DNA from: a virus
IMG/VR virus record: IMGVR_UViG_3300009034_000132
Coordinates: 1 to 34,735 of that record
Direction: 5' to 3' (one strand)
DNA: 34,735 nucleotides
Shown piece by piece: positions 12,817-34,715 of the stretch (positions within the stretch are counted from its first letter, which is position 1; each line of letters begins with the position of its first letter). The notes below the pieces were generated by a model. It searched no databases and had not been told where the DNA came from. It worked only from the letters and a program-made list of their open reading frames with translations. The position numbers and the translations under genes are program-made.

Positions 12817-14139
12817 ATGACAGATGAAAACTATGACGATATGTCATTAGACGAGCTGAAAAAGCTCAAGGAAAACAGGGAAAAGAAACAACTTGTAGAC
12901 GACCTTAAGTCTGAGGACAAAAAACTTCAAGAAGAAGCTGAAAAGCAGAAACTTGAAGAACAGAGAGCCGCATGGCAAGAGGAGTTCTACAAGGAACACC
13001 CTGAGTTCCAGCCTGCCGAAAAAATACCCGATGTTGGCAAAGAGACCAAAAACACTGGAGAAAACAAACTCCAAGAGTACTACAACGGCTATTACAAACG
13101 TCACGAAAACATTGAAACCGAGTCAAGATATCCGGCTAAACTTGCCGATGTCAAAAACGAGCGTTTCCAAGTTTATCGGAACCAGAGATGGGAAGAGACA
13201 GGCGTAGAAGGCTTATTCATTAACACAGATTCAGATAGTGGTTGCGAAGACGACGTAAGTGAGTGGAGTCCAGACGACGTTTACGCCAAAATTATATGGG
13301 AAACCTTTGTCTGTAAGGCTGACCTGTTTAAGATTGCCGTAAAAGGAATAGCAATAAACCCCGGTGACGGACTGGGAGTCCAAATCCGAGCGTTCGGTGC
13401 ATTCGGAGACCCTTCAGAGTTAGGTTCTTGTGAGTGTGCAAGTTGCGCTTCAATTACATTCACGACTTACCCGTTGACCTTAAAACAGTATAACTTGGAA
13501 GCCATTGTTTGTGATAGAGACATATGGGACGTCGGAAGCATCCTAATGGATTCTTACCTAAAGTCAATGTCTGACTCATGGGCAAGATGGTTCGATGCTC
13601 AGATTTACTCTGAACTAGAAACTGCAACACCCGGAACAACCGAAACCTTAGCGGGCGCTCTTTCGTGTACCCCAGCCATTGGTGGAAGTTGTTGTACTGA
13701 TTCTTCTTTAGTGAATCTCTACAATGCTGTACACAATACAGTTGCAAGTATGAGAGAAGGAACCGGTCTCGCAGGCCCCTATGACCCAGATTACATTATT
13801 GTTTCACCAACCGTCGCTGCGATATTTAAACGTATGCAGACACCTACACCAATGCCTTGGATGGGTGACGTGTCATTCGACAAAGACGGAAGGCTCAAAT
13901 CTATAGGTAGTCTAAAGGTTATCGAGTACTGTGGTGCTAACTCCTGTACTGATTCGAGTACTGAGGTTGCAGCGGTCATCATTGATTCAAGGCGTGCTGT
14001 TGGTGCTGTCTTCGGACAGAGACCGAAAACTTACAAGTTCTTCCAAACGAACTGTAACAGCTACAGAATTGACCAATGGGCTTACTTCGCTGTAGGCGAA
14101 TTGGATACTGACGCAATAGCTCACATCGTGAATCCATAG
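12817..14139 (+). CDS. major capsid protein (HK97 fold)
   Basis: 440 residues. Residues 1-70 are a highly charged coiled coil (KKLKENREKKQLVDDLKSED), matching a delta scaffold domain. From about residue 140 an HK97-type capsid core follows: an E-loop/P-domain region with WSPDDVYAKIIWETF, the segment YIIVSPTVAAIFKRM, GSLKVIEYCGAN and a terminal VGELDTDAIAHIVNP strand. GGAGG is well placed before the ATG. The protein has about 12 cysteines, including CECASC and GSCCTD, which is unusual for a capsid protein and suggests disulfide or metal cross-links. Confidence 0.85.
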   Translation: MTDENYDDMSLDELKKLKENREKKQLVDDLKSEDKKLQEEAEKQKLEEQRAAWQEEFYKEHPEFQPAEKIPDVGKETKNTGENKLQEYYNGYYKRHENIETESRYPAKLADVKNERFQVYRNQRWEETGVEGLFINTDSDSGCEDDVSEWSPDDVYAKIIWETFVCKADLFKIAVKGIAINPGDGLGVQIRAFGAFGDPSELGSCECASCASITFTTYPLTLKQYNLEAIVCDRDIWDVGSILMDSYLKSMSDSWARWFDAQIYSELETATPGTTETLAGALSCTPAIGGSCCTDSSLVNLYNAVHNTVASMREGTGLAGPYDPDYIIVSPTVAAIFKRMQTPTPMPWMGDVSFDKDGRLKSIGSLKVIEYCGANSCTDSSTEVAAVIIDSRRAVGAVFGQRPKTYKFFQTNCNSYRIDQWAYFAVGELDTDAIAHIVNP

Positions 14140-17903: not shown

Positions 17904-18106
17904 AGCAGTTCCAAGAGTTGATACATATTGTCTATCTAAAGGTGGGCAATCTGCAAGAAATTCGTAAAATGAACTATTGGCGATTCAGGGTTATTTTAAA
18001 AACTCTCAACAAGCTTAACTGTTTAGAGAGTGGTAAACCTTATATAGAGCAGGGATTGCCTAGAAGTTCTAGAGACATGATTGAAAAGAGGAAAGCTCAA
18101 AGGTAA
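17850..18106 (+). CDS. tail assembly chaperone frameshift extension (T-like)
   Basis: The -1 frame reads TKIYWDEELKQFQELIHIVY, then LKVGNLQEIRKMNYWRFRVI and PYIEQGLPRSSRDMIEKRKA. It is protein-like throughout and ends four bases before the tape measure start. No well-placed ATG with a ribosome-binding site opens it, and a TTG at 17918 would be poor. Expression as a fusion to the upstream G-like protein by a -1 slip near 17845-17855 is the natural explanation, as with lambda GT. The fusion would recruit the tape measure for tail assembly. Confidence 0.6.
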
Positions 18107-18110
18107 ATTT

Positions 18111-20783
18111 ATGGCAACGAACAAAGTTGAACTTGACATTCTCTCCAATGCAAAAAAGGTTTTGGGCGAATTACGCCAGATGAATGCCGAATTACGCAAT
18201 GTTAGAGACAACACTCAAAAATTACACGCGACTGGTGTGTCTGGAGCGACCAAACACAAGTCAGCGATGGCTGGGTTGGCCTTACGTTTCGTTGGGTACA
18301 ACTTGATATTGAATCAGGTCATGGGTTCTCAGCAGAAACTTTATGAGTATGTAACAGAGAGCATCACGAAATTCAGGGAATTCCAGACGCGCATTGCTGA
18401 GGTCAGTACCATCATGGGTGTCGACTTTCAAAGTTCAATTTCCGGTTTAAAGGCCGGTGTGGAAAATTTATCAGTATCATTTGGAAAAAATACAAGTGAT
18501 ATGTCTAAGGGTCTTTATGATATCATGTCTGCGGCTTTCAGTGCCGACGAGGCCATTGCGCTTTTAGCCAGTTCTACTAAGGCTGCGATTGCTGGATTGG
18601 CAGAAGTTAGAGAATCAGTAGATATATTTACAACTGTTTTAAATACGTATGGAATGTCTGCATATGAAGCCACGTGGGTTTCAGATATGCTGTTCCAGTC
18701 TGTAGTTAGAGGTAAGTTTCAATTTGCCGACTTGGAGTCTGCACTTGGATACGTAGTTCCGATAGCCGCGCAAGCCGGAATTCAATTTGACGAGTTAATG
18801 GCCGCTTTGTCTACAACCACAAGGCATGGTCTTCACCTTGACATGACCTCCCGTGGTTTGGCGATGGCCATTCAAAACATCATTAACCCTTCAGAAGGAG
18901 CAGCCAAAGCCGCTATGAAATACGGAATACAAATGAACGGTTTGACCCTGCGAATGAAAGGTCTTACAGGGTTCTTCACTGAATTACAGGAAAAAACCAA
19001 GGAATATGGTAAAGTTGTGATGACAGAGTTGATTCCAAACATCAGGTCTTTGAGAACGGTCATGGTATTGGCAGGTGAAGAAGGTCTCGAGGGTTTGATA
19101 GACGATATGGATAAGTTGTCTATGGCTGGTGGAAGAACAGAAGAGGCTTTGAGCAAGATAATGGCAACCAGTGGATTTGTATCTAATCAGATTACACAAC
19201 AATGGGAGCAGACTCAGAGAGATGTCGGTGAGGCTTGGGATAAACTAGCTTTGGGAGTTCAACAAGGAATTACTGATATTGTTGCTAATTGGCAGTCTTT
19301 TTTACCAATTATAGGGCCGATTTTCACTGCCATGAAAGCTGTCGATGAGATGGATTATCAGAAGTGGCTTAAGGGAAAACAGATACAGGCAGGAGTTGCC
19401 CCCGGATATATTCGTAAAGACTATCCAACTGAAGTAATGCAAGTTTATTTAGATTTACAAAAAGATATAGCCAAAACGTCAGAAGAGATAAACAGAAGAA
19501 TGCTGGCAGGCGAAGGTTATGAAGAGCAATATAGACAACTGTTAGCGCTTCAAAATATTACTGCTGATTTACAGGAAGATTTCAATCGAGCATTCGGTGA
19601 ACCAATCCTTGGTGGAATAAGAAACCTTGAAGAATTGCATGTAACACTCGATGAAATTGAGATTGCGATAGGAAGAATCAAAGAGAGGCTTTCCATGGAG
19701 ATAAGCTATGGGTGGGGAGCCTATGCAGGCACAATCAAAGGAACTTTAAATTATCAATATAAATTACTGGAAGCTGAGCAGGCTCATGTAGATGTATCTC
19801 ACGATGTTAAAATGGGTTTGGCTGATGAAAATTATCAATACAAAGTTCTTAATAGTACTATGCAAGAAGCCATAGAAATAGTGAGAAATCATACCGAAGT
19901 TCAAAAAAAGGATGCAGAAGCAACTAAAATATTGAATATGGAAATGCGTAAACTTCAACTACAGGCGGCTCAAATTCAACTGAAAGGAATGTTGAGACGA
20001 AGAGGGTTGACCCGTAAAGAAGAAAGAATGCTAAAAAGGATTCAGATAGAGCAACTCAAGTTACGCATAGAAGAAATGAAGACTACACAGCAAGAAACTG
20101 AAGCGGATTATAGTCTTTATTTAGAAAAGAAAAGATTGATTGACGATTATTTACGTGCTAAGACAGAAGAAAGGTATCAACTGAAATACAACTACGACCA
20201 ACAATTGATTGACTTGCAGTTACTAATTGACAACGAGAAATTGGCTTTAGAAGAACTGGAAGACGGATGGAAAGATACCACTGATGAGATTGCGATACTT
20301 ACTCAAAGCTTGGTGGATAGTTTAACAGAAATTCTAGGTGACCCAAAACTTGCTGCCGCTTTTATGAATATTGGAATAGATATTCAAAATTTATTAAATG
20401 ATGTAAAAAACCTTGGAGAAACCACAACGACAACGACGGCTACTGGTGGAAAAACCATCACAACCACTTCTACCGATGAGGCAAAAACTTTTGCCAAACA
20501 GCTGCTCCCTCCAATGACGCAAAAACTTTTAGGGTTTGTCGGATTCCAACGAGGAATAAGGTATGTTCCAGAAACTCAACCCGCCATAGTGCATAGGGGA
20601 GAGACCATTTCGCCCGCAGGTCAAGAAATCGGTGGTGGAATTTACATAGAAAGTTTGACAATCGAGGTAAAAGAAATAGCCGACATTGGAAGCATAGAAA
20701 AACTCAATGCACTATTGTCGCAAGCTGAAGGTAGTGGATTGATGAAAAGGGGAAGAACCAATTACAAACTCAGGATAGGTTGA
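18111..20783 (+). CDS. tail tape measure protein
   Basis: 890 residues, with the start chosen at ATG 18111 (AAAGGT six bases upstream); an earlier in-frame codon lies inside the chaperone frame. Residues about 110-330 are a PhageMin_Tail/TP901-type core: GLYDIMSAAFSADEAIALLA, AAQAGIQFDELMAALSTTTR and TSRGLAMAIQNIINPSEGAA. A long coiled-coil middle follows (MRKLQLQAAQIQLKGMLRRR; EKKRLIDDYLRAKTEERYQL). The C-terminus has GFQRGIRYVPETQPAIVHRG then ETISPAGQ, a common tape measure end. It sets tail length; the length implies a fairly long flexible tail. Confidence 0.9.
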   Translation: MATNKVELDILSNAKKVLGELRQMNAELRNVRDNTQKLHATGVSGATKHKSAMAGLALRFVGYNLILNQVMGSQQKLYEYVTESITKFREFQTRIAEVSTIMGVDFQSSISGLKAGVENLSVSFGKNTSDMSKGLYDIMSAAFSADEAIALLASSTKAAIAGLAEVRESVDIFTTVLNTYGMSAYEATWVSDMLFQSVVRGKFQFADLESALGYVVPIAAQAGIQFDELMAALSTTTRHGLHLDMTSRGLAMAIQNIINPSEGAAKAAMKYGIQMNGLTLRMKGLTGFFTELQEKTKEYGKVVMTELIPNIRSLRTVMVLAGEEGLEGLIDDMDKLSMAGGRTEEALSKIMATSGFVSNQITQQWEQTQRDVGEAWDKLALGVQQGITDIVANWQSFLPIIGPIFTAMKAVDEMDYQKWLKGKQIQAGVAPGYIRKDYPTEVMQVYLDLQKDIAKTSEEINRRMLAGEGYEEQYRQLLALQNITADLQEDFNRAFGEPILGGIRNLEELHVTLDEIEIAIGRIKERLSMEISYGWGAYAGTIKGTLNYQYKLLEAEQAHVDVSHDVKMGLADENYQYKVLNSTMQEAIEIVRNHTEVQKKDAEATKILNMEMRKLQLQAAQIQLKGMLRRRGLTRKEERMLKRIQIEQLKLRIEEMKTTQQETEADYSLYLEKKRLIDDYLRAKTEERYQLKYNYDQQLIDLQLLIDNEKLALEELEDGWKDTTDEIAILTQSLVDSLTEILGDPKLAAAFMNIGIDIQNLLNDVKNLGETTTTTTATGGKTITTTSTDEAKTFAKQLLPPMTQKLLGFVGFQRGIRYVPETQPAIVHRGETISPAGQEIGGGIYIESLTIEVKEIADIGSIEKLNALLSQAEGSGLMKRGRTNYKLRIG

Positions 20784-26706: not shown

Positions 26707-27315
26707 TTATGGAGGATTTTTAAAAAAGCGTGCAGGTATTCCTTTTACTTTTGTATAAGGTGGCACAGTTTTTGTAACTACTGCACCAGAGGCAACTACA
26801 GCATATTCTCCTATTATAACATCTGGAAGTATTGTAGCATTGGCACCTATACGAGCACCTTTGCATATAATTGGTGCCTTATATTCTACATTGCCTTCAT
26901 TTTTGCCCATTGTATTATCGTTAGTCGTTGCTACAAGGGTACTGATAAAAACATCGTCTTCGATAACAATATTACCCGTAAGGTGTGTGTTGTCCATTAC
27001 TTTAACTCCATTGCCGATTGTCACATTGTAATTTAGAGTGACACCATTTGCTATTATACAGTTATTACCGATTTTGGCGCCTTCTCTGATTACAACATTA
27101 CTACAAATCAAACAATTTTTACCTATCTTCACACCGGCATAAATTACTGTATTTGGATAAATGATAGTATTATCACCTATCTCTGTTTCAGCGAGTATCT
27201 TTTGTATTTTTCTTTTTGTAACCTTCATCGGTATTGGTTGAAACCCAACAATTGTGTTCTCAAATATTCTGACATTTTTTCCGAGCTTTGTATGCGGGGA
27301 TACTAGTTTAGTCAT
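26707..27315 (-). CDS. hexapeptide-repeat (left-handed beta-helix) acyltransferase
   Basis: 202 residues with many hexapeptide turns: IGDNTIIYPNTVIYAGVKIG, NCLICSNVVIREGAKIGNNC, ICKGARIGANATILPDVIIG and VVTKTVPPYTKVKGIPARFF. This is the WbbJ/DapH-like acyltransferase fold, commonly O- or N-acetylating sugars. GAGGAATTATT precedes the ATG. Grouped with glycosyltransferases and a sulfotransferase, it probably acts in viral or host-surface glycan modification. Confidence 0.82.
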   Translation of the reverse strand: MTKLVSPHTKLGKNVRIFENTIVGFQPIPMKVTKRKIQKILAETEIGDNTIIYPNTVIYAGVKIGKNCLICSNVVIREGAKIGNNCIIANGVTLNYNVTIGNGVKVMDNTHLTGNIVIEDDVFISTLVATTNDNTMGKNEGNVEYKAPIICKGARIGANATILPDVIIGEYAVVASGAVVTKTVPPYTKVKGIPARFFKNPP

Positions 27316-28337
27316 AATAATTCCTCATAAATTGCTAGGTATTTTTTTCCAATATACTTGGGATTAAACCATTTGTTGACCATTAATTTGTTAAACTTGG
27401 CTGATGCGCGTTGTTCTTTCTTATCTGCAATCAGGTGTTCTAACTCATCGACCGTCTTTATCCCGTGCTCAAGTTGAAGATAATTTTCTTTTTCTCCGGT
27501 TGCAACAATGGCGGTATTGTTTTGAGCTGCTTCCAATAGCGTTCTACCTATTCCATAATGATGGTAGGGTTGTACGTAGATATTGGATACAGCGAACAGG
27601 TCTTTTAAATCTTGGTGATTTAAGCCATCGTAATACACTACCGCATTTTTGCACAGATTAAAATATTTGGAAACTGTGTCTTTCCAGCCCTGCCCCACTA
27701 TTGTCAGGATAACCTTTTGTTTAGGAAATGTTGAGTAGTGTTGCAATAGGCCTTCGAAATTACGCCAAGTGGCGTAATTTCCGACTGCGATGAGTCTTAC
27801 AATGTCGTTACGCGGCCTTATTTTTGAAGCTGTATAATTTTCGTCAATCATATTTGGAATTACGGTTATTTTCTCTTCTTTCAATCCGTCATTGACCCAA
27901 GTGTCAGTATAAAACTTGCTTAAAGTCGTAAATCTCTTTATGTGCCTCGTATATGCCTGCAACATCATAGAATTAAAATTATACGCGACTGTGGGTTTGC
28001 TTCCCAGCTCTCGGCCAAAGGTTGGTGAATATACGTGTCCGTTGAGAGAGCCAACCGTATTGGTGCCATATTTCTTGGTCAATAGTCCTAATGTCGGAAG
28101 AAGATTCATATTATAGGCATGTAGAATATCATAGTCATCAAGTCTTTTTTTTAGATACTTGTACATTTTCAAGAACAACTTCTCTTTCCTCTTTGTCTTT
28201 GGAAATATTACATTTGCGGAAATGACGTCTACCATCACCCCGAGATTTTCCAAAGCCTTAACCAGCTGTTCACAGCTTATCTCTCCTCCGCCCACGATAT
28301 TTGGTGGATAGCGGGGAGTTACCATCGCTATTTTCAT
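27312..28337 (-). CDS. GT4-type glycosyltransferase
   Basis: 341 residues. N-terminal IAMVTPRYPPNIVGGGEISC binds the acceptor in GT-B enzymes. The C-terminal domain has DIVRLIAVGNYATWRNFEGL, IYVQPYHHYGIGRTLLEAAQ and a following E-x7-E-like acidic pattern. It transfers an activated sugar with retention of configuration. A ribosome-binding AAGGGG precedes the ATG. Specificity cannot be read. Confidence 0.8.
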   Translation of the reverse strand: MKIAMVTPRYPPNIVGGGEISCEQLVKALENLGVMVDVISANVIFPKTKRKEKLFLKMYKYLKKRLDDYDILHAYNMNLLPTLGLLTKKYGTNTVGSLNGHVYSPTFGRELGSKPTVAYNFNSMMLQAYTRHIKRFTTLSKFYTDTWVNDGLKEEKITVIPNMIDENYTASKIRPRNDIVRLIAVGNYATWRNFEGLLQHYSTFPKQKVILTIVGQGWKDTVSKYFNLCKNAVVYYDGLNHQDLKDLFAVSNIYVQPYHHYGIGRTLLEAAQNNTAIVATGEKENYLQLEHGIKTVDELEHLIADKKEQRASAKFNKLMVNKWFNPKYIGKKYLAIYEELL

Positions 28338-28339
28338 TT

Positions 28340-28912
28340 TTATTTCCCCTTTAATTCGTATTTGAAATTTTTTATATCTAATTTAAAGAGTCTCTTTACC
28401 ATTTTATAGGTCTCGTCATCATAATATTCCCAGTATGGTTTATGTTCTGATTTTCTAAGGTGAGGAAGAGGCACCTTTAACTTTAGTCTTTTAGAGATTT
28501 TCCGAAAGTCTTTTTTCAAATGTTCAAAACGGCAAACGGCATCGACCGCGATTTTGTTGTTAATGCAGATGTAGTTCCATTGCGGGTCGTTGTGTATGCT
28601 TGTCGGAAGATATTCAAGGCAAAACTTTTTAAAATCTGTACCTATCTCTTTTGAACGTGCGAGGTCTAACGCCCCTTGGTTACCACCTTTTGAGTTATAA
28701 GCAAAGACGCTTACAAGTCTGTCCCAAGGATTTCTTACCACTGCAAACTTGAAGTACTCTTTGAATTCCGGTATGTTCCTATGGTTTTCTATCTTTTCAT
28801 GGGTAGAACCTGTCGCTTTCGGTTTGGTCATATCTCGTAGTACGTTCTCTATGCTCGTACCACCAGTTCTGGGAATATGAATAAAGATACATTTATACCT
28901 ACGCGATAACAT
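28340..28912 (-). CDS. sulfotransferase (family 2-like, PAPS-dependent)
   Basis: The start is ATG at 28912 with GGAGAG eight bases upstream; a farther codon at 29002 lies inside the preceding gene. FIHIPRTGGTSIENVL (residues 10-25) is the 5'-phosphosulfate loop and FAVVRNPWDRLVSVF (56-70) is the 3'-phosphate motif of carbohydrate sulfotransferases. It would transfer sulfate from PAPS to a glycan. Its position between two glycosyltransferases suggests viral or host surface sulfation, an unusual cargo for a small tailed virus. Confidence 0.78.
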   Translation of the reverse strand: MLSRRYKCIFIHIPRTGGTSIENVLRDMTKPKATGSTHEKIENHRNIPEFKEYFKFAVVRNPWDRLVSVFAYNSKGGNQGALDLARSKEIGTDFKKFCLEYLPTSIHNDPQWNYICINNKIAVDAVCRFEHLKKDFRKISKRLKLKVPLPHLRKSEHKPYWEYYDDETYKMVKRLFKLDIKNFKYELKGK

Positions 28913-29948
28913 ACTCGAAACTCTCCAGTATATCCAGCAATTGTTGTTCTCTGCGAGCCAGCGAAAAATTTTCGAGAATGCGCTTTCTGGCAAGGTGACC
29001 ACGTGGATTTTTTTTATTGAGTATCATAAAAATTTTTTCCCCTACCGCTTTTTTATCCAGAGCGGTTTCGCCATTCTTTGCAGTCCAAAAATCGTGTCGA
29101 CTTATGACTATACCCGTGTCTCCTACGACTTCAGGCAATGCTCCGTATGCACTGACTATCGGGTAGCATTTACACAGCATAGCCTCGGCTACGGCAACAC
29201 CAAACCCCTCATGCCTTGACAGTTGCAGATAGATTTTCGCCCTCTGAAAATATCTCAAGAGGTCTTCGTCGCTGACCCTTCCCATCCAGAGAACGTTTGG
29301 CAGGGTTATGTATTTGTCGAGAAATGCCCGCATCTCTGAGACTATCTCTCCACACACTATGAATTTTTCCCTGCGGCCTATTGAATAGAAATACTCTGCG
29401 ACCTTTACAAAGTTATCGAGTCCTTTCCTTTTCCAGTTGCTCTTGTTGACCTCGGCAACGGTCAGGATTATGTTTTCCTTTTTACCTTTCGGATAAAATT
29501 TGTCAACCGGGACACCATTGTGAACGAGCTTGTTTTTCTTTACGGTCATTTTTTCCAACAACTCACGCTGATTGTTCTCGCTTACCGAGAGTACAAGGTC
29601 GGCGTTTTGCAGAGAAGACTTTGCGAGTATCCTATCTCTGGCTCTAACAAATACCCCGTAATTGATTTCCGGCATGTCTACCACATCGTAACCACCAGCG
29701 ACAACGATTGACTTCTTACCGAAGAATTTACAGCACTTGACAGCAATCGCCGAGTTCTTTCCACCGAACCAAGAGAACGTGACATCTGCCTTTCTGACAG
29801 CCGCTGCTATCTTCAGAACTTGTGTGTATTCTTTTTTGCCTTTGAGCATGGCACTGTCGAGCAGTATCGTTTCGTACTTCTTGCTGATTATGTCATAGTC
29901 GTTTTTTGTGAACGAGGCCTTCATGTTTCCGATAACGCATACTTTCAT
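28899..29948 (-). CDS. GT4-type glycosyltransferase
   Basis: 349 residues. GT-B features: IILTVAEVNKSNWKRKGLDN (acceptor region), NVLWMGRVSDEDLLRYFQRA and LSRHEGFGVAVAEAMLCKCY followed by PEVVGDTG, the E-x7-E donor-binding core of GT4. GGAGG is well placed for the ATG. It acts with the sulfotransferase and second glycosyltransferase of this cassette. Confidence 0.82.
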   Translation of the reverse strand: MKVCVIGNMKASFTKNDYDIISKKYETILLDSAMLKGKKEYTQVLKIAAAVRKADVTFSWFGGKNSAIAVKCCKFFGKKSIVVAGGYDVVDMPEINYGVFVRARDRILAKSSLQNADLVLSVSENNQRELLEKMTVKKNKLVHNGVPVDKFYPKGKKENIILTVAEVNKSNWKRKGLDNFVKVAEYFYSIGRREKFIVCGEIVSEMRAFLDKYITLPNVLWMGRVSDEDLLRYFQRAKIYLQLSRHEGFGVAVAEAMLCKCYPIVSAYGALPEVVGDTGIVISRHDFWTAKNGETALDKKAVGEKIFMILNKKNPRGHLARKRILENFSLARREQQLLDILESFEYVIA

Positions 29949-30098
29949 TCATTTTCCTCCAAATATGTTTTTTATCCATGTAGCATAGACCCATACCACT
30001 ATAAATATGATTCCTGCAACATAGATTCCTGCGCACCCTTGCTTGTTTAGGTAAGGAGCGGTCTCACTATAAAACCTTGCTAGTACCAATGAAATCAT
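29949..30098 (-). CDS. 49-residue single-span membrane protein
   Basis: A soluble start (MISLVLARFYSETAPYLNKQ) leads to one transmembrane helix (GIYVAGIIFIVVWVYATWI), and the C-terminus (KNIFGGK) overlaps the ribosome-binding site of the glycosyltransferase. The ATG overlaps the TAA of the upstream DUF6899-like gene. It could anchor the glycan enzymes to the membrane; that is a guess. Confidence 0.55.
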   Translation of the reverse strand: MISLVLARFYSETAPYLNKQGCAGIYVAGIIFIVVWVYATWIKNIFGGK

Positions 30099-30343
30099 TA
30101 AACATCGCCGTTTTGTTCAATCTTTTTGTCTTCATAAGGCGCGACAAGCCGTCTGAATATTTCACGGAGAGCTTGCTGACATTCGCCCTCGAGTCTCATA
30201 AAGTCTTCATAACTACTGCACGTTTCCTTTGCAAGTTTGTGTAGAAAGTAGTTTAGGTTTCCCTTTTCTTTTAATAGAAGTCCATAATTTTCAACAGCCT
30301 TATTTAATACGCTTCGCATAAATTTGTTTGCTATGTATGGCAT
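30098..30343 (-). CDS. DUF6899-like conserved phage protein
   Basis: 81 residues. MPYIANKFMRS, GNLNYFLHKLAKE and the ending IFRRLVAPYEDKKIEQNGDV match a recurrent phage/metagenome family in which P-Y-I begins the protein, G-x-L-N-Y sits in the middle and R-R-x-x-x-P-Y-E-D-x-K-x-x-x-N-G-D-V ends it. Function is unknown. The family link is from recognition of this pattern. Confidence 0.65.
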   Translation of the reverse strand: MPYIANKFMRSVLNKAVENYGLLLKEKGNLNYFLHKLAKETCSSYEDFMRLEGECQQALREIFRRLVAPYEDKKIEQNGDV

Positions 30344-30516: not shown

Positions 30517-30738
30517 CTAGAACACCATCAGATAGTAAAATCCAACTTTGTTTCTGGAGTCCAGTTTCTTTTCGATTTGTTTTTTTATCCTTGTCAACTG
30601 TTTTCTCGTAAGTCCAGACCTTTTTAGTAGTATGTTTCCATCTCTGCCAAAAAATACGAGAGTGCCTTTTTCAAAGTTGAGCTCACCCCTCACGACGTCT
30701 CCGTTTTGAATCCACATGTATATGTCCTTGTCGCTCAT
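30517..30738 (-). CDS. 73-residue hypothetical protein
   Basis: N-terminal strand region (WIQNGDVVRGELNFEKGTLV) and a basic helical C-terminus (LTRKQLTRIKKQIEKKLDSR). AAGGA precedes the ATG. No family recognised. Confidence 0.5.
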   Translation of the reverse strand: MSDKDIYMWIQNGDVVRGELNFEKGTLVFFGRDGNILLKRSGLTRKQLTRIKKQIEKKLDSRNKVGFYYLMVF

Positions 30739-31196
30739 TTTAAACCGTCCTTAAGTCCATATTTTACCTTTATAAATTCCTCTAGTTCTTTTCTGTTAGC
30801 AAAAATTTTTGTTGCATGTTCTTGAATCCACGGGTGAAATTTATGTGTTTTTGTCACGATGTATACAGGAATTCTTAATATGCGCTTTGCAAAAAAGATT
30901 TCCATAGGTGTACCGATTCTTGTGTCATTTGCGAAAGCGATAATTCCGTCACTCTTGCGAATTTTGTCGAGGTCGTCCTCCACCACGTTTTCTGTATCCC
31001 TCTGAGCGAAAAAATCTCTTTGTTCCTTACTGCCGTCCTTCATTGAATCTAATATTTGCATCTCTTTTTTTCTATGCGGATTGTCGTAAAATGGATTATC
31101 AAGATTTATGTTATATTTAGCTTCTATTATAAGCTCCCATTTTCTAAAAGACTTTCTAAGATAGAAATTATGGGCTAAGTAAAATGTTTTTACCAT
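30735..31196 (-). CDS. nucleoside 2-deoxyribosyltransferase-like protein
   Basis: 153 residues. VKTFYLAHNF (strand-loop), a central VEDDLDKIRKSDGIIAFAND and RIGTPMEIFFAKRILRIPVY resemble the nucleoside 2-deoxyribosyltransferase/NDT-like fold, in which an E in the GxxMEI strand aids catalysis. Members exchange or cleave N-glycosidic bonds of nucleosides, perhaps to remodel host nucleotide pools. GGAGAT precedes the ATG. Function by fold is moderate; substrate not known. Confidence 0.6.
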   Translation of the reverse strand: MVKTFYLAHNFYLRKSFRKWELIIEAKYNINLDNPFYDNPHRKKEMQILDSMKDGSKEQRDFFAQRDTENVVEDDLDKIRKSDGIIAFANDTRIGTPMEIFFAKRILRIPVYIVTKTHKFHPWIQEHATKIFANRKELEEFIKVKYGLKDGLK

Positions 31197-31884: not shown

Positions 31885-32102
31885 TTAATCTCCTCAATCT
31901 CCTTTTTCTTTTGCCTGCCGAGTATCTTTATCGTATTCCCATTGCGGCATTTCATACCGTCCTTTATCCGGCGTTTCGTACCATATGCATCCTTCACCGT
32001 CAACACCCTACCTACTATGTTTGTCACCTTGTGTGTTCTGAACGAAGCCTCCTTATCTATGTAGGTAACATACTTTCCTTTGAGTTTATCTTTATGTATC
32101 AT
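31875..32102 (-). CDS. 75-residue basic beta-rich hypothetical protein
   Basis: Contains YVTYIDKEASFRTHKVTNIV and a KOW-like segment (VLTVKDAYGTKRRIKDGM), suggesting a small SH3-like nucleic-acid-binding barrel. GAGGT precedes the ATG. It overlaps the polymerase end by 11 bases. Confidence 0.5.
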   Translation of the reverse strand: MIHKDKLKGKYVTYIDKEASFRTHKVTNIVGRVLTVKDAYGTKRRIKDGMKCRNGNTIKILGRQKKKEIEEIKWK

Positions 32103-33888
32103 TATTTACCTCTTTCAAATCAATACCTTTGCTATGTGCTTCCTCCCAAGTCCTGCCGAACTTACAGTCCACCTCGACCGGTACAGACAGGTTTTTACCC
32201 GCTTTCAACATGCTCGATTTTACTATAGTAAAACAAGAATTCGCATATTTTACAGGGCACGACACTATGACCTCGTCATGCACTGTTGATATTATTCTTG
32301 CATCGAATTCTTTCAATCGTGAATACATTAAGACCATCGCCATCTTTATAAGGTCTGCCGCACTGCCCTGTATAATGGCATTTATGGCACTCCTAATCTC
32401 GCCACCCTTTTCAAAGTCGTCCTTTGTCGAAAAGAATTGCGAACGTCTCCTCTTTCTGCCAGACCAAGTTTTTACATAACCTTGATTGATGAATTGTTCT
32501 TCAGACTGCTGCCAAAATTCCTTGACCCCGGGATACATGTTAAAGTATCTGTCTATGTATTGTTGAGCTTCAGTCGCAGAAACCTTGATTTGTTTCGCCA
32601 AAGTCTTATTCCTCATTCCATATACCAGTCCAAAGTTTACGGTTTTCGCCTCTTGCCGTCCGATACCACAAGCATCTGCGGTCATTTGATGAATATCCTT
32701 TTTTTCCGCATAGGCTTTCATGAGATTCAGGTCTTTGGAAAAGTGCGCTAAGACCCGCAGTTCAATCTGTGAATAATCGGCGCCAATCAATATGTGACCG
32801 TCATCGGCCACTATCGCCTGTCGTATACCCAGTTTGTCAGCACGTGGAATGTTTTGCATGTTTGGTCTACTGCTACTGAAACGACCGGAAACGGTACCGC
32901 TTTGATTGAATGATGGGTAAATCTTGCCCCTATACGTTTTTAAATCCCATTTAACGGGCTTTAGGGCTGGCATGAACGTCGTCAATATTTTATTATACTT
33001 ACGGTACTCTAACAACAGTTTGGCTTCAGCGTTGTCCTCTGCGTATTTCTCGAGGACTTCTTTGTCTACCGACGGAGCACCTGTTTTCTTGCTCTGCTTT
33101 ATAACTGGCATGTTTCTTTTGTCTATAAAGTATTCTTTCAACTGTTTTGAACTATTAAAATTGATGTCACCAATGAGAAGTTTTAACTTGGTCTCATTGA
33201 GCTCTACCTTCTTTTTACAATACTCGGTCAATTCATAGACTTTTTTTGCGTCTATCATTATTCCATTGGAGTGCATATTGGCGATTACATGGAGTAGCGG
33301 TCTCTCTATCTTGGTATAGACATACTCTATCTCTCTATCCTTTAAAAGTTCTGTTTCTAATAGTGAATATAGTTTTAATGTATAGTAAGCATCATCACAA
33401 GCATATTTTACTTTATTTTTTGGCGCTTTGCTAAATGGAATTTGTTTAAGACCAGTTCCACATATTTCTTTATATTCAGTCATGGTATAATTAAAGTATT
33501 TTTTTACCAAACTCTTTAGTCCATGTCTCATGTTTTCATTAATAATATTTGCCATTATTAAAGTATCATGAATTGAATAACACTTGCTAATATCAATGCC
33601 AAATTTATATAAGGTAGGTAAATCAAAAGACGAGTTGTGAAATACGACAATACAATTATCTATTATAAACTGTAACAGATTTTTAGCTTCTTCAAGAGGC
33701 ATGTTGTTTAATACTTTGTCTCTTACAGGAACATACATCACGGTCTCTTTATCATATGCTATACTAAAACCGACTAAAGTCTTATCTTCCAGAGATTTGG
33801 TTTCCGTATCTATGGCAACAAGGCGTGCCTTTTTCAGGTCTGTCAGTAAAAGACCGTTATAACCTGTAGCATATCTACTTTTTCTCAT
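32092..33888 (-). CDS. polA: DNA polymerase I, family A, with proofreading domain
   Basis: 598 residues. The 3'-5' exonuclease has IDTETKS (Asp27, Glu29), NSSFDLP (Asp89) and KYACDDA (Tyr162, Asp166). The polymerase core has motif A GADYSQIELR (Asp371), motif B RQEAKTVNFGLVYG (Arg411, Lys415, Phe419, Tyr423) and motif C VHDEV (His537-Glu539). The Phe at the 762-equivalent is the bacterial Pol I form, not the T7-type Tyr. The 5' nuclease domain is absent. It overlaps the cysteine synthase gene at an ATGA junction and works with the left-arm PrimPol-helicase. Confidence 0.93.
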   Translation of the reverse strand: MRKSRYATGYNGLLLTDLKKARLVAIDTETKSLEDKTLVGFSIAYDKETVMYVPVRDKVLNNMPLEEAKNLLQFIIDNCIVVFHNSSFDLPTLYKFGIDISKCYSIHDTLIMANIINENMRHGLKSLVKKYFNYTMTEYKEICGTGLKQIPFSKAPKNKVKYACDDAYYTLKLYSLLETELLKDREIEYVYTKIERPLLHVIANMHSNGIMIDAKKVYELTEYCKKKVELNETKLKLLIGDINFNSSKQLKEYFIDKRNMPVIKQSKKTGAPSVDKEVLEKYAEDNAEAKLLLEYRKYNKILTTFMPALKPVKWDLKTYRGKIYPSFNQSGTVSGRFSSSRPNMQNIPRADKLGIRQAIVADDGHILIGADYSQIELRVLAHFSKDLNLMKAYAEKKDIHQMTADACGIGRQEAKTVNFGLVYGMRNKTLAKQIKVSATEAQQYIDRYFNMYPGVKEFWQQSEEQFINQGYVKTWSGRKRRRSQFFSTKDDFEKGGEIRSAINAIIQGSAADLIKMAMVLMYSRLKEFDARIISTVHDEVIVSCPVKYANSCFTIVKSSMLKAGKNLSVPVEVDCKFGRTWEEAHSKGIDLKEVNNDT

Positions 33889-34715
33889 AAATATCGTATC
33901 CTGTTATCTGGAAATATGGTTAATACTTTTTTGTATTCTTTGGCGATTAATTTTGCCGCTATGAAATTTGCACCGCTTGAATAACCGCAAGAGATGCCGT
34001 ATTCTTTCATTAATTTGGTGGCTGTTGTCAATGCCAATTCCCAAAAGACAAATACTTTATGCCTACTAAGATTATACGGTATTAAAGTTTGTTTGATGTT
34101 GTCTGTGATACCTTCTATCGGTTTGTCACCGGCTGTCTGTACCTCGTATATATCGGCATGCGGAAATATGGCATGCAATCCCATCAATGTACCGCCTGTT
34201 CCGGTTCCGGCAACAATTGCATTAGGATTTTTTAATTGATACAATAAGTCATCATCTAGTGTTCTTTGTGAACCATATTTAACTTCGTATGCCATTTTCT
34301 TTTGAGCCTCAAGATTATAAAGATTGGTAAATTGATTAGGATATATGTCTGCTTTTTTATTTTTAACCATTTTTTTGGCTTTGTCTATACAATCTTGCAT
34401 GGTATGAAATCCAGAATCAATCTTTGCACCATATTGTCGCATCATCTTTATCTTTAATCTGCTTGTATCATATGGACAGAGTATCCAGCAGTCTAACCCC
34501 AATGCCGCACAAACCATTGCTATAGAAATTCCCGTATTCCCACTTGTTGCCTCTACAACTGTGAATCTCCTATGAGCCTTTCCAATATAAGGAAGTAGCA
34601 TTTCTTTGGCAACACGGTCTTTTATAGAGCCAGATGGGTTCATCATCTCCATCTTGAAATAAACATTGCCTATGTTCATCAATGGAGTATTACCTATTAA
34701 GTCGAGTATGTTCAT
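33885..34715 (-). CDS. cysK: cysteine synthase (PLP-dependent O-acetylserine sulfhydrylase-like)
   Basis: 276 residues. LIGNTPL (6-12), MNPSGSIKDR (25-34; Lys32 for the PLP Schiff base), EATSGNTGISIA (55-66), PNQFTN (126-131) and AGTGTGGTLMG (169-179, PLP phosphate-binding loop) make a complete fold-type II cysteine synthase, with CGYSSGAN near 243-250. The protein would make cysteine from O-acetylserine and sulfide, possibly with a related beta-replacement specificity. It is an unusual auxiliary metabolic gene, in an operon with the viral polymerase. The ATG lies 20 bases from the right edge, so any promoter is outside the window. Confidence 0.85.
   Translation of the reverse strand: MNILDLIGNTPLMNIGNVYFKMEMMNPSGSIKDRVAKEMLLPYIGKAHRRFTVVEATSGNTGISIAMVCAALGLDCWILCPYDTSRLKIKMMRQYGAKIDSGFHTMQDCIDKAKKMVKNKKADIYPNQFTNLYNLEAQKKMAYEVKYGSQRTLDDDLLYQLKNPNAIVAGTGTGGTLMGLHAIFPHADIYEVQTAGDKPIEGITDNIKQTLIPYNLSRHKVFVFWELALTTATKLMKEYGISCGYSSGANFIAAKLIAKEYKKVLTIFPDNRIRYL

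What the first reader, a model, noticed from the sequence alone, without database searches (positions are those of the whole stretch)
33885..34715. Viral cysteine synthase in the polymerase operon
A complete PLP enzyme with Lys32 and all expected loops overlaps the DNA polymerase gene. It may feed cysteine needs of a virus whose capsid and tail tube are cysteine-rich and that carries many zinc-finger proteins.
Basis: partly seen in the sequence, partly recalled or inferred. Interest (0 to 1): 0.6.

Follow-up and report, generated by a model that had tools for sequence, protein, structure and literature searches.

The report
Viral cysteine-synthase-like enzyme with altered loop
An uncultured virus of microbes carries a complete enzyme of the cysteine-synthase family, a kind of gene already known in many viruses, but its active-site loop holds an aspartate that a known hydrogen-sulfide-releasing relative needs, so the gene's name does not tell whether it makes or breaks down cysteine.

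Summary
Window 33885-34715 (-) encodes a complete 276-aa fold-type-II PLP enzyme (Pfam PALP, 9e-47). It has Lys32 and the cofactor and substrate loops, models confidently (pLDDT 92) on O-acetylserine sulfhydrylases (Z about 35), and overlaps polA by four bases (ATGA). Viral cysK genes are a published kind of auxiliary gene.

The polA link is not conserved: two near-relatives keep the gene and lack polA. Four other members of this virus lineage carry a different, CysM-like enzyme, one of them at the same ATGA overlap with polA. The gene is in 6 of 10 long lineage records. The capsid protein is strikingly cysteine-rich (nine cysteines invariant in 16 of 16 homologues), but equally so in records without the gene. 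A cysteine-supply role therefore has no comparative support.

New here: the loop that reads QGIGAGF in E. coli CysK reads EGITDN. Its Asp205 aligns with Asp232 of Fusobacterium Fn1055, the residue reported as key in that cysteine (hydroxyl)lyase (cysteine + water to serine + H2S). 71 of 80 viral relatives share the Asp; it was rare in the cellular genes sampled. The enzyme probably exchanges OH and SH between serine and cysteine; the direction in vivo is unknown.

The parts
33885..34715 (-). cysK-like gene, 276 aa, fold-type-II PLP beta-replacement enzyme
34620..34622 (-). codon AAA, Lys32, expected PLP Schiff-base lysine
   Evidence: sequence; invariant in alignments A1 and A3
34542..34547 (-). 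Thr57-Ser58 of the substrate loop, aligned with Fn1055 Thr73/Ser74
34332..34334 (-). Gln128, aligned with Fn1055 Gln147
34101..34103 (-). codon GAC, Asp205, aligned with Fn1055 Asp232 (Ala in E. coli CysK)
33885..33888 (-). ATGA overlap of the cysK stop and polA start, suggesting coupled translation
   Evidence: the same 4-base overlap occurs in L046 with a different cysK type
32092..33888 (-). DNA polymerase family A with 3'-5' exonuclease domain, 598 aa
31190..31507 (-). small membrane protein (PQ-loop/SWEET-like by eye, no Pfam hit), part of the conserved neighbourhood
30735..31196 (-). nucleoside-2-deoxyribosyltransferase-like protein (sub-threshold Pfam hit), the best conserved neighbour, about 60% identical in the three relatives that share this cysK type
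30098..30343 (-). conserved 81-aa ORF of unknown function in the same neighbourhood

Best explanation
It is a working viral PLP enzyme of the cysteine-synthase family that swaps the group on the beta-carbon of a three-carbon amino acid. Lys32 holds PLP. The substrate (serine, O-acetylserine or cysteine) loses its beta-substituent to give an alpha-aminoacrylate, and sulfide or water then adds. Asp205 sits in the loop that closes over the substrate and would act as acid/base for loss or addition of water, as Asp232 does in Fn1055. The enzyme would then interconvert serine + H2S and cysteine + water without needing acetylserine. My lean is net cysteine formation in a sulfide-rich host (about 55:45 against H2S release). 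Shown: the fold, a complete catalytic residue set, the aspartate and its alignment. Inferred: activity, substrate, direction and benefit to the virus.
For: PALP 9e-47. AF2 model pLDDT 92, pTM 0.90; best structural matches are CysM and CysK structures, Z 34-36, rmsd 1.8-2.0 over 264-265 residues. Lys32, the TSGNTG loop, Gln128 and the GTGTGGT loop are kept across the viral alignments, which argues for selection on catalysis. Fn1055 Thr73/Ser74/Gln147/Asp232 align with window T57/S58/Q128/D205. The position was located from the D232N structure 5B55, which differs from 5B53 at this residue in the printed alignments. Those four residues are named as key in Fn1055 in PMC12940168. Asp is found in 71 of 80 viral relatives. 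The best hexapeptide transferase in the window scores 54 bits against a cysE cut-off of 211 and is closest to NeuD-type sugar acetyltransferases.
Against: No activity data exist. Asp at this site also occurs in a haloarchaeal (L126) and a Lachnospiraceae (L117) gene of untested function, and archaea were barely sampled, so it may simply mark a branch and not a reaction. The placing of the window clade with the Asp-type viral group and Fn1055 has only 93/62 support. Around the Asp the window loop (EGITDNIKQTLIP) differs from Fn1055 (EGISDEFIPDL). Host serine acetyltransferase could supply acetylserine, so absence of cysE in the window says little.
Confidence: 0.55

Rival explanations
1. Cysteine-degrading, H2S-releasing (hydroxyl)lyase. 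The enzyme mainly turns host cysteine + water into serine + H2S, recycling serine or changing sulfide or redox state during infection.
For: The four residues reported as key in Fn1055 are present (PMC12940168). A viral CysK has been linked to sulfide from cysteine degradation in a Lactococcus phage-host model (Kieft et al. 2021 as summarised in PMC12713726). Cysteine richness does not follow presence of the gene, which weakens a supply role.
Against: A virus with a cysteine-rich capsid would be spending its own building block. The Lactococcus phage enzymes have Ala, not Asp, at the site, so that published case is not the same variant.
Confidence: 0.25
2. Ordinary O-acetylserine sulfhydrylase that supplies cysteine from host O-acetylserine and sulfide; Asp205 is a neutral lineage marker.
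For: Nearest solved structures are CysK/CysM enzymes. The lineage has more cysteine than a control set, median 1.71 against 1.03%, p = 1e-7, confounded by GC 35 against 63%. Viruses with cysH were reported to use more cysteine (PMC9723712).
Against: Scores far below the cysK/cysM cut-offs. Nearly all cellular CysK sampled have Ala or another residue at the site. Lineage members without the gene are equally cysteine-rich.
Confidence: 0.15
3. A related beta-replacement with another donor or acceptor (O-phosphoserine, or a nucleophile other than sulfide, as in SbnA or O-ureidoserine synthase), perhaps serving the neighbouring surface-sugar genes.
For: This fold family contains such enzymes. The clade has a rebuilt, shorter substrate loop and no tail after RYL. 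Sugar, sulfotransferase and acetyltransferase genes lie nearby.
Against: No partner gene for such a pathway was recognised, and the sugar genes differ between relatives while the cysK-type gene stays.
Confidence: 0.05

Closest known systems
Viral cysK auxiliary metabolic genes (Kieft et al. 2021, cited in PMC12713726; PMC8725595; Lactococcus phages P087, phiQ1, P596)
   Same: Virus-borne CysK-family gene with complete catalytic loops
   Different: About 36% identity to the Lactococcus phage proteins in the phage search; those have Ala (QGISAGF) where the window has Asp; different virus lineage
Fn1055 cysteine (hydroxyl)lyase of Fusobacterium nucleatum (PDB 5B53, 5B55, 5Z5C)
   Same: Same fold family; Thr, Ser, Gln and Asp catalytic positions all match
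   Different: About 33-38% identity; Fn1055 keeps the IPDL part of the loop and a longer segment before it; not shown to be its sister in the tree
Bacterial CysK (O-acetylserine sulfhydrylase A)
   Same: Fold, Lys, TSGNTG, Gln, GTGTGGT
   Different: At most 42% identity in the Bacillota and Chloroflexota genomes searched; QGIGAGF loop replaced; 149 bits against a cut-off of 351
CysM-like enzymes carried by sister viruses (L032, L038, L045, L046)
   Same: Same virus lineage; in L046 the gene sits at the same polA-overlapping site
   Different: 31-34% identity; loop QGLKNLQF; grouped with E. coli CysM at 100/99 support, while the window clade falls outside it

Membership tests
Fold-type-II PLP enzymes (Pfam PALP) | PALP profile over the curated cut-off | tested here: met
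   160 bits against a cut-off of 35, residues 4-269
Fold-type-II PLP enzymes (Pfam PALP) | PLP lysine, substrate Asn loop and glycine-rich phosphate loop | tested here: met
   K32, TSGN60TG and the GTGTGGT loop
Cysteine synthase CysK/CysM (NCBIfam cysKM, cysK, cysM) | Score over the curated equivalog/subfamily cut-off | tested here: not met
   157/344, 149/351 and 113/394 bits
Cysteine synthase CysK/CysM (NCBIfam cysKM, cysK, cysM) | OASS fold over the whole chain | tested here: met
   Z 34-36, 264-265 residues aligned
Cysteine synthase CysK/CysM (NCBIfam cysKM, cysK, cysM) | Gating loop QGIGAGF (CysK) or RRWP type (CysM) | tested here: not met
   PIEGITDNIKQ in the window
Cysteine synthase CysK/CysM (NCBIfam cysKM, cysK, cysM) | O-acetylserine sulfhydrylase activity | not testable with these tools
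   needs an enzyme assay
Fn1055-type cysteine (hydroxyl)lyase | Asp at position 232 with Thr73, Ser74 and Gln147 | tested here: met
   D205, T57, S58, Q128
Fn1055-type cysteine (hydroxyl)lyase | Groups with Fn1055 in a tree | tested here: inconclusive
   One side of a branch with Asp-type viral rows and Fn1055 at 93/62 support
Fn1055-type cysteine (hydroxyl)lyase | Makes H2S and serine from cysteine | not testable with these tools
   needs an enzyme assay
Viral cysK auxiliary metabolic gene | Gene lies inside a viral genome among viral genes | tested here: met
   Overlaps viral polA; terminase, portal, HK97-like capsid and tape measure in the same record; three related viral contigs carry it
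Viral cysK auxiliary metabolic gene | Changes host metabolism during infection | not testable with these tools
   host unknown

The most novel reading that the evidence does not exclude
Most environmental viral 'cysteine synthases', this one included, are a distinct enzyme type marked by an Asp in the substrate loop. They work as serine/cysteine-sulfide exchangers or H2S-releasing cysteine (hydroxyl)lyases and not as acetylserine-dependent synthases, so current annotation of this auxiliary gene misstates its substrate and perhaps its direction.
Probability: 0.35. Interest if true: 0.7.

Novelty: new variant of a known kind. Interest (0 to 1): 0.42.

Why it matters
Viral cysK is cited as evidence that viruses steer the sulfur cycle, but surveys assign it to cysteine synthesis or to sulfide release by name alone. 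One residue position, at which most viral copies differ from most of the cellular enzymes sampled, gives a direct test of which reaction they run and whether they need acetylserine. If the Asp is decisive, the metabolic meaning of hundreds of viral genes changes.

Tried and rejected
Single-sequence scans of viral contigs with the cysK, portal and polA proteins found nothing; alignments were needed. The hexapeptide transferase 26707-27315 was considered as a serine acetyltransferase partner and rejected: cysE 54 against 211 bits, best family NeuD-type. Several 'Bacteriophage sp.' matches in the phage collection were set aside as bacterial contigs (for example L002 and L005 with ABC transporter, mnmA or dsbD-like genes). 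That the window-type and CysM-type genes of the lineage are one old gene: disfavoured (log-likelihood 35 lower) but not rejected, p-AU 0.087; an earlier quick tree could not tell (0.07 lower, p 0.49), so two separate gains are likely but not proven. Close cellular donor: none; the genome scan gave 32% over the full length at best in its table and whole-genome searches up to 42%. 'Asp at 232 is unique to Fn1055' (my memory of the paper, which is not held) is not true in this sample, since L117 and L126 have it. Literature searches for a viral (hydroxyl)lyase found nothing.

Full report
WHAT IS THERE. The window is a linear virus record of 34,736 bases with terminase, portal, tape measure and primase genes. 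Its last complete ORF on the minus strand, 33885-34715, encodes 276 aa. Its TGA stop and the ATG of the DNA polymerase A gene (32092-33888) share four bases, ATGA. Pfam PALP matches residues 4-269 at 9.3e-47. Lys32, EATSGNTG, Gln128 and GTGTGGT are in place. The protein is short. It lacks the segment before the gating loop (the SPVLSGG..GPHK region of CysK) and ends at RYL, as do its three nearest relatives. The AlphaFold model built from 45 viral sequences has pLDDT 92 and pTM 0.90 and lies on CysM and CysK structures with Z 34-36 and rmsd 1.8-2.0 over 264-265 residues.

HOW IT IS CLASSED. It scores 157, 149 and 113 bits against cysKM, cysK and cysM, whose cut-offs are 344, 351 and 394. In named phages the best match is the cysteine synthase of Lactococcus phages at about 36%. 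An alignment-based scan of viral contigs found 327 relatives. Three are close (L012 52%, L013 50%, L014 45%); the rest of the 80 kept are at most 38% identical in the best segment. In cellular genomes the best identity was 42% (Bacillota) and 40% (Chloroflexota), with 61 genomes searched in each phylum. In a careful tree the window and L012-L014 form one clade (100/100) on a long branch.

THE NEIGHBOURHOOD. L012 and L013 lie in records of 43-45 kb (G005, G006) from the same virus lineage. Terminase, portal, capsid, adaptor, tail tube and tape measure are collinear at roughly 30-58% identity. Across the lineage the constant neighbours are a small membrane protein, a nucleoside-deoxyribosyltransferase-like protein and an 81-aa ORF, followed by variable sugar genes. 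polA is absent from G005 and G006. Among ten lineage records of 37 kb or more (G005-G008, G010, G014, G016, G018, G021, G029), six have a PALP gene and eight have polA. The records are linear and may be incomplete, so absences are provisional. The four other PALP genes of the lineage (G007, G008, G014, G016) are of another type, 31-34% identical to the window and placed inside the CysM group at 100/99 support. In G016 (L046) this CysM-like gene overlaps polA by four bases exactly where the window has its own type; in the other three it sits elsewhere, after the primase block. Forcing both types into one clade costs 35 log-likelihood units, p-AU 0.087. The reading I prefer is that this lineage has gained, lost or exchanged cysteine-synthase-family genes more than once, which points to a repeated benefit. 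It is not proven.

THE LOOP. Among the structural matches are the H2S-producing enzymes of Fusobacterium nucleatum, including Fn1055 and its D232N mutant 5B55. Fn1055 converts cysteine + water into serine + H2S; Asp232, Ser74, Thr73 and Gln147 are named as key residues (PMC12940168; reaction also in PMC9865163). A Fusobacterium gene nearly identical to Fn1055, aligned to 5B53 and 5B55, shows that the mutated residue is the D of RIEGISDEFIP. In the alignment these four residues match window T57, S58, Q128 and D205. E. coli CysK has Ala where the Asp is. Of the 80 viral relatives 71 (counting the window) have Asp; the Lactococcus phage enzymes have Ala and the CysM-like ones Phe, Glu or Val. Among the sampled cellular genes, apart from Fn1055 itself, only L117 (Lachnospiraceae) and L126 (a haloarchaeon) have Asp. 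In the careful tree the window clade, the Asp-type viral group and Fn1055 form one side of a branch, support 93/62, which is suggestive only. Asp at this place is well suited to protonate a leaving hydroxyl or activate water, so the viral enzymes may exchange OH and SH on serine and cysteine. This is inference from one enzyme's mutant to a family with at most about 38% identity to it. Archaea were hardly sampled, and one study placed a viral cysK near Thaumarchaeota (PMC8725595).

DOES IT FEED A CYSTEINE-RICH VIRION? The 440-aa protein at 12817-14139 is the capsid protein: the model, though of medium quality (pLDDT 70), matches HK97-fold capsids throughout the list. It has 12 cysteines; nine positions are cysteine in 16 of 16 lineage homologues. 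The tail tube has 3.3% cysteine and the tape measure none. But three long lineage records in which no PALP gene was found have capsids with 3.4, 3.6 and 3.6% cysteine and total cysteine of 1.61-1.86%, close to or inside the range of the gene carriers, 1.69-2.36%. The lineage as a whole is richer in cysteine than a control set with distant terminases (1.71 against 1.03%), but the control is far more G+C-rich (63 against 35%). Cysteine richness is a lineage trait and does not track this gene. The zinc-finger remark is fair: four small proteins with CxxC motifs are present.

WHAT IS KNOWN. Viral cysK is an established auxiliary metabolic gene: Mariana Trench viruses (PMC8725595), coastal viromes (PMC10134843), jumbo phages (PMC13037316), and Kieft et al. 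2021, whose Lactococcus phage work is summarised as sulfide production from cysteine degradation (PMC12713726; the original is not held). Higher cysteine use was reported for viruses with cysH (PMC9723712). No paper found links viral cysK to the (hydroxyl)lyase residue.

VERDICT. A real, ordinary-in-kind viral cysteine-synthase-family gene in a divergent compact form. The polymerase link and the capsid-supply story do not survive comparison. The useful new point is a single testable residue that could decide whether this and most viral copies make cysteine from serine, release H2S from cysteine, or use acetylserine as their name implies.

Noticed in passing
window 12817-14139 (+): HK97-fold capsid protein with 12 cysteines, nine of them invariant in 16 of 16 lineage homologues and no match in 50,697 named phage records; suggests a disulfide- or metal-stabilised capsid.
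   Followed up: partly
window 18081-20783 (+); L132, L135, L137: The tape measure protein has no cysteine at all (900 aa here, none in relatives) although the neighbouring adaptor and tail tube proteins carry 2.5-7% cysteine.
   Followed up: partly
L046:4616-7371: A CysM-like gene overlaps polA by four bases at the same site as the window's different cysK type, hinting at exchange of one enzyme type for another at one locus.
   Followed up: yes
L039, L051, L052, L058, L070, L082: A separate viral group clusters firmly with Fusobacterium Fn1055 (100/99 with the four members kept in the careful tree) and has loop IEGIGDSF; better candidates than the window for true cysteine (hydroxyl)lyases.
   Followed up: partly
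window 30735-31196 (-): Nucleoside-deoxyribosyltransferase-like protein, the best conserved neighbour of the cysK-like gene in this lineage, with no match in named phages.
   Followed up: partly
window 26707-29948 (-): Cassette of two glycosyltransferases, a sulfotransferase and a hexapeptide acetyltransferase; the sugar genes are different in each relative, as if swapped freely.
   Followed up: no
L002, L005 (MT835718, MT837148): Phage-collection records labelled 'Bacteriophage sp.' that look like bacterial chromosome contigs, so counts of phage cysK from such records are inflated.
   Followed up: partly
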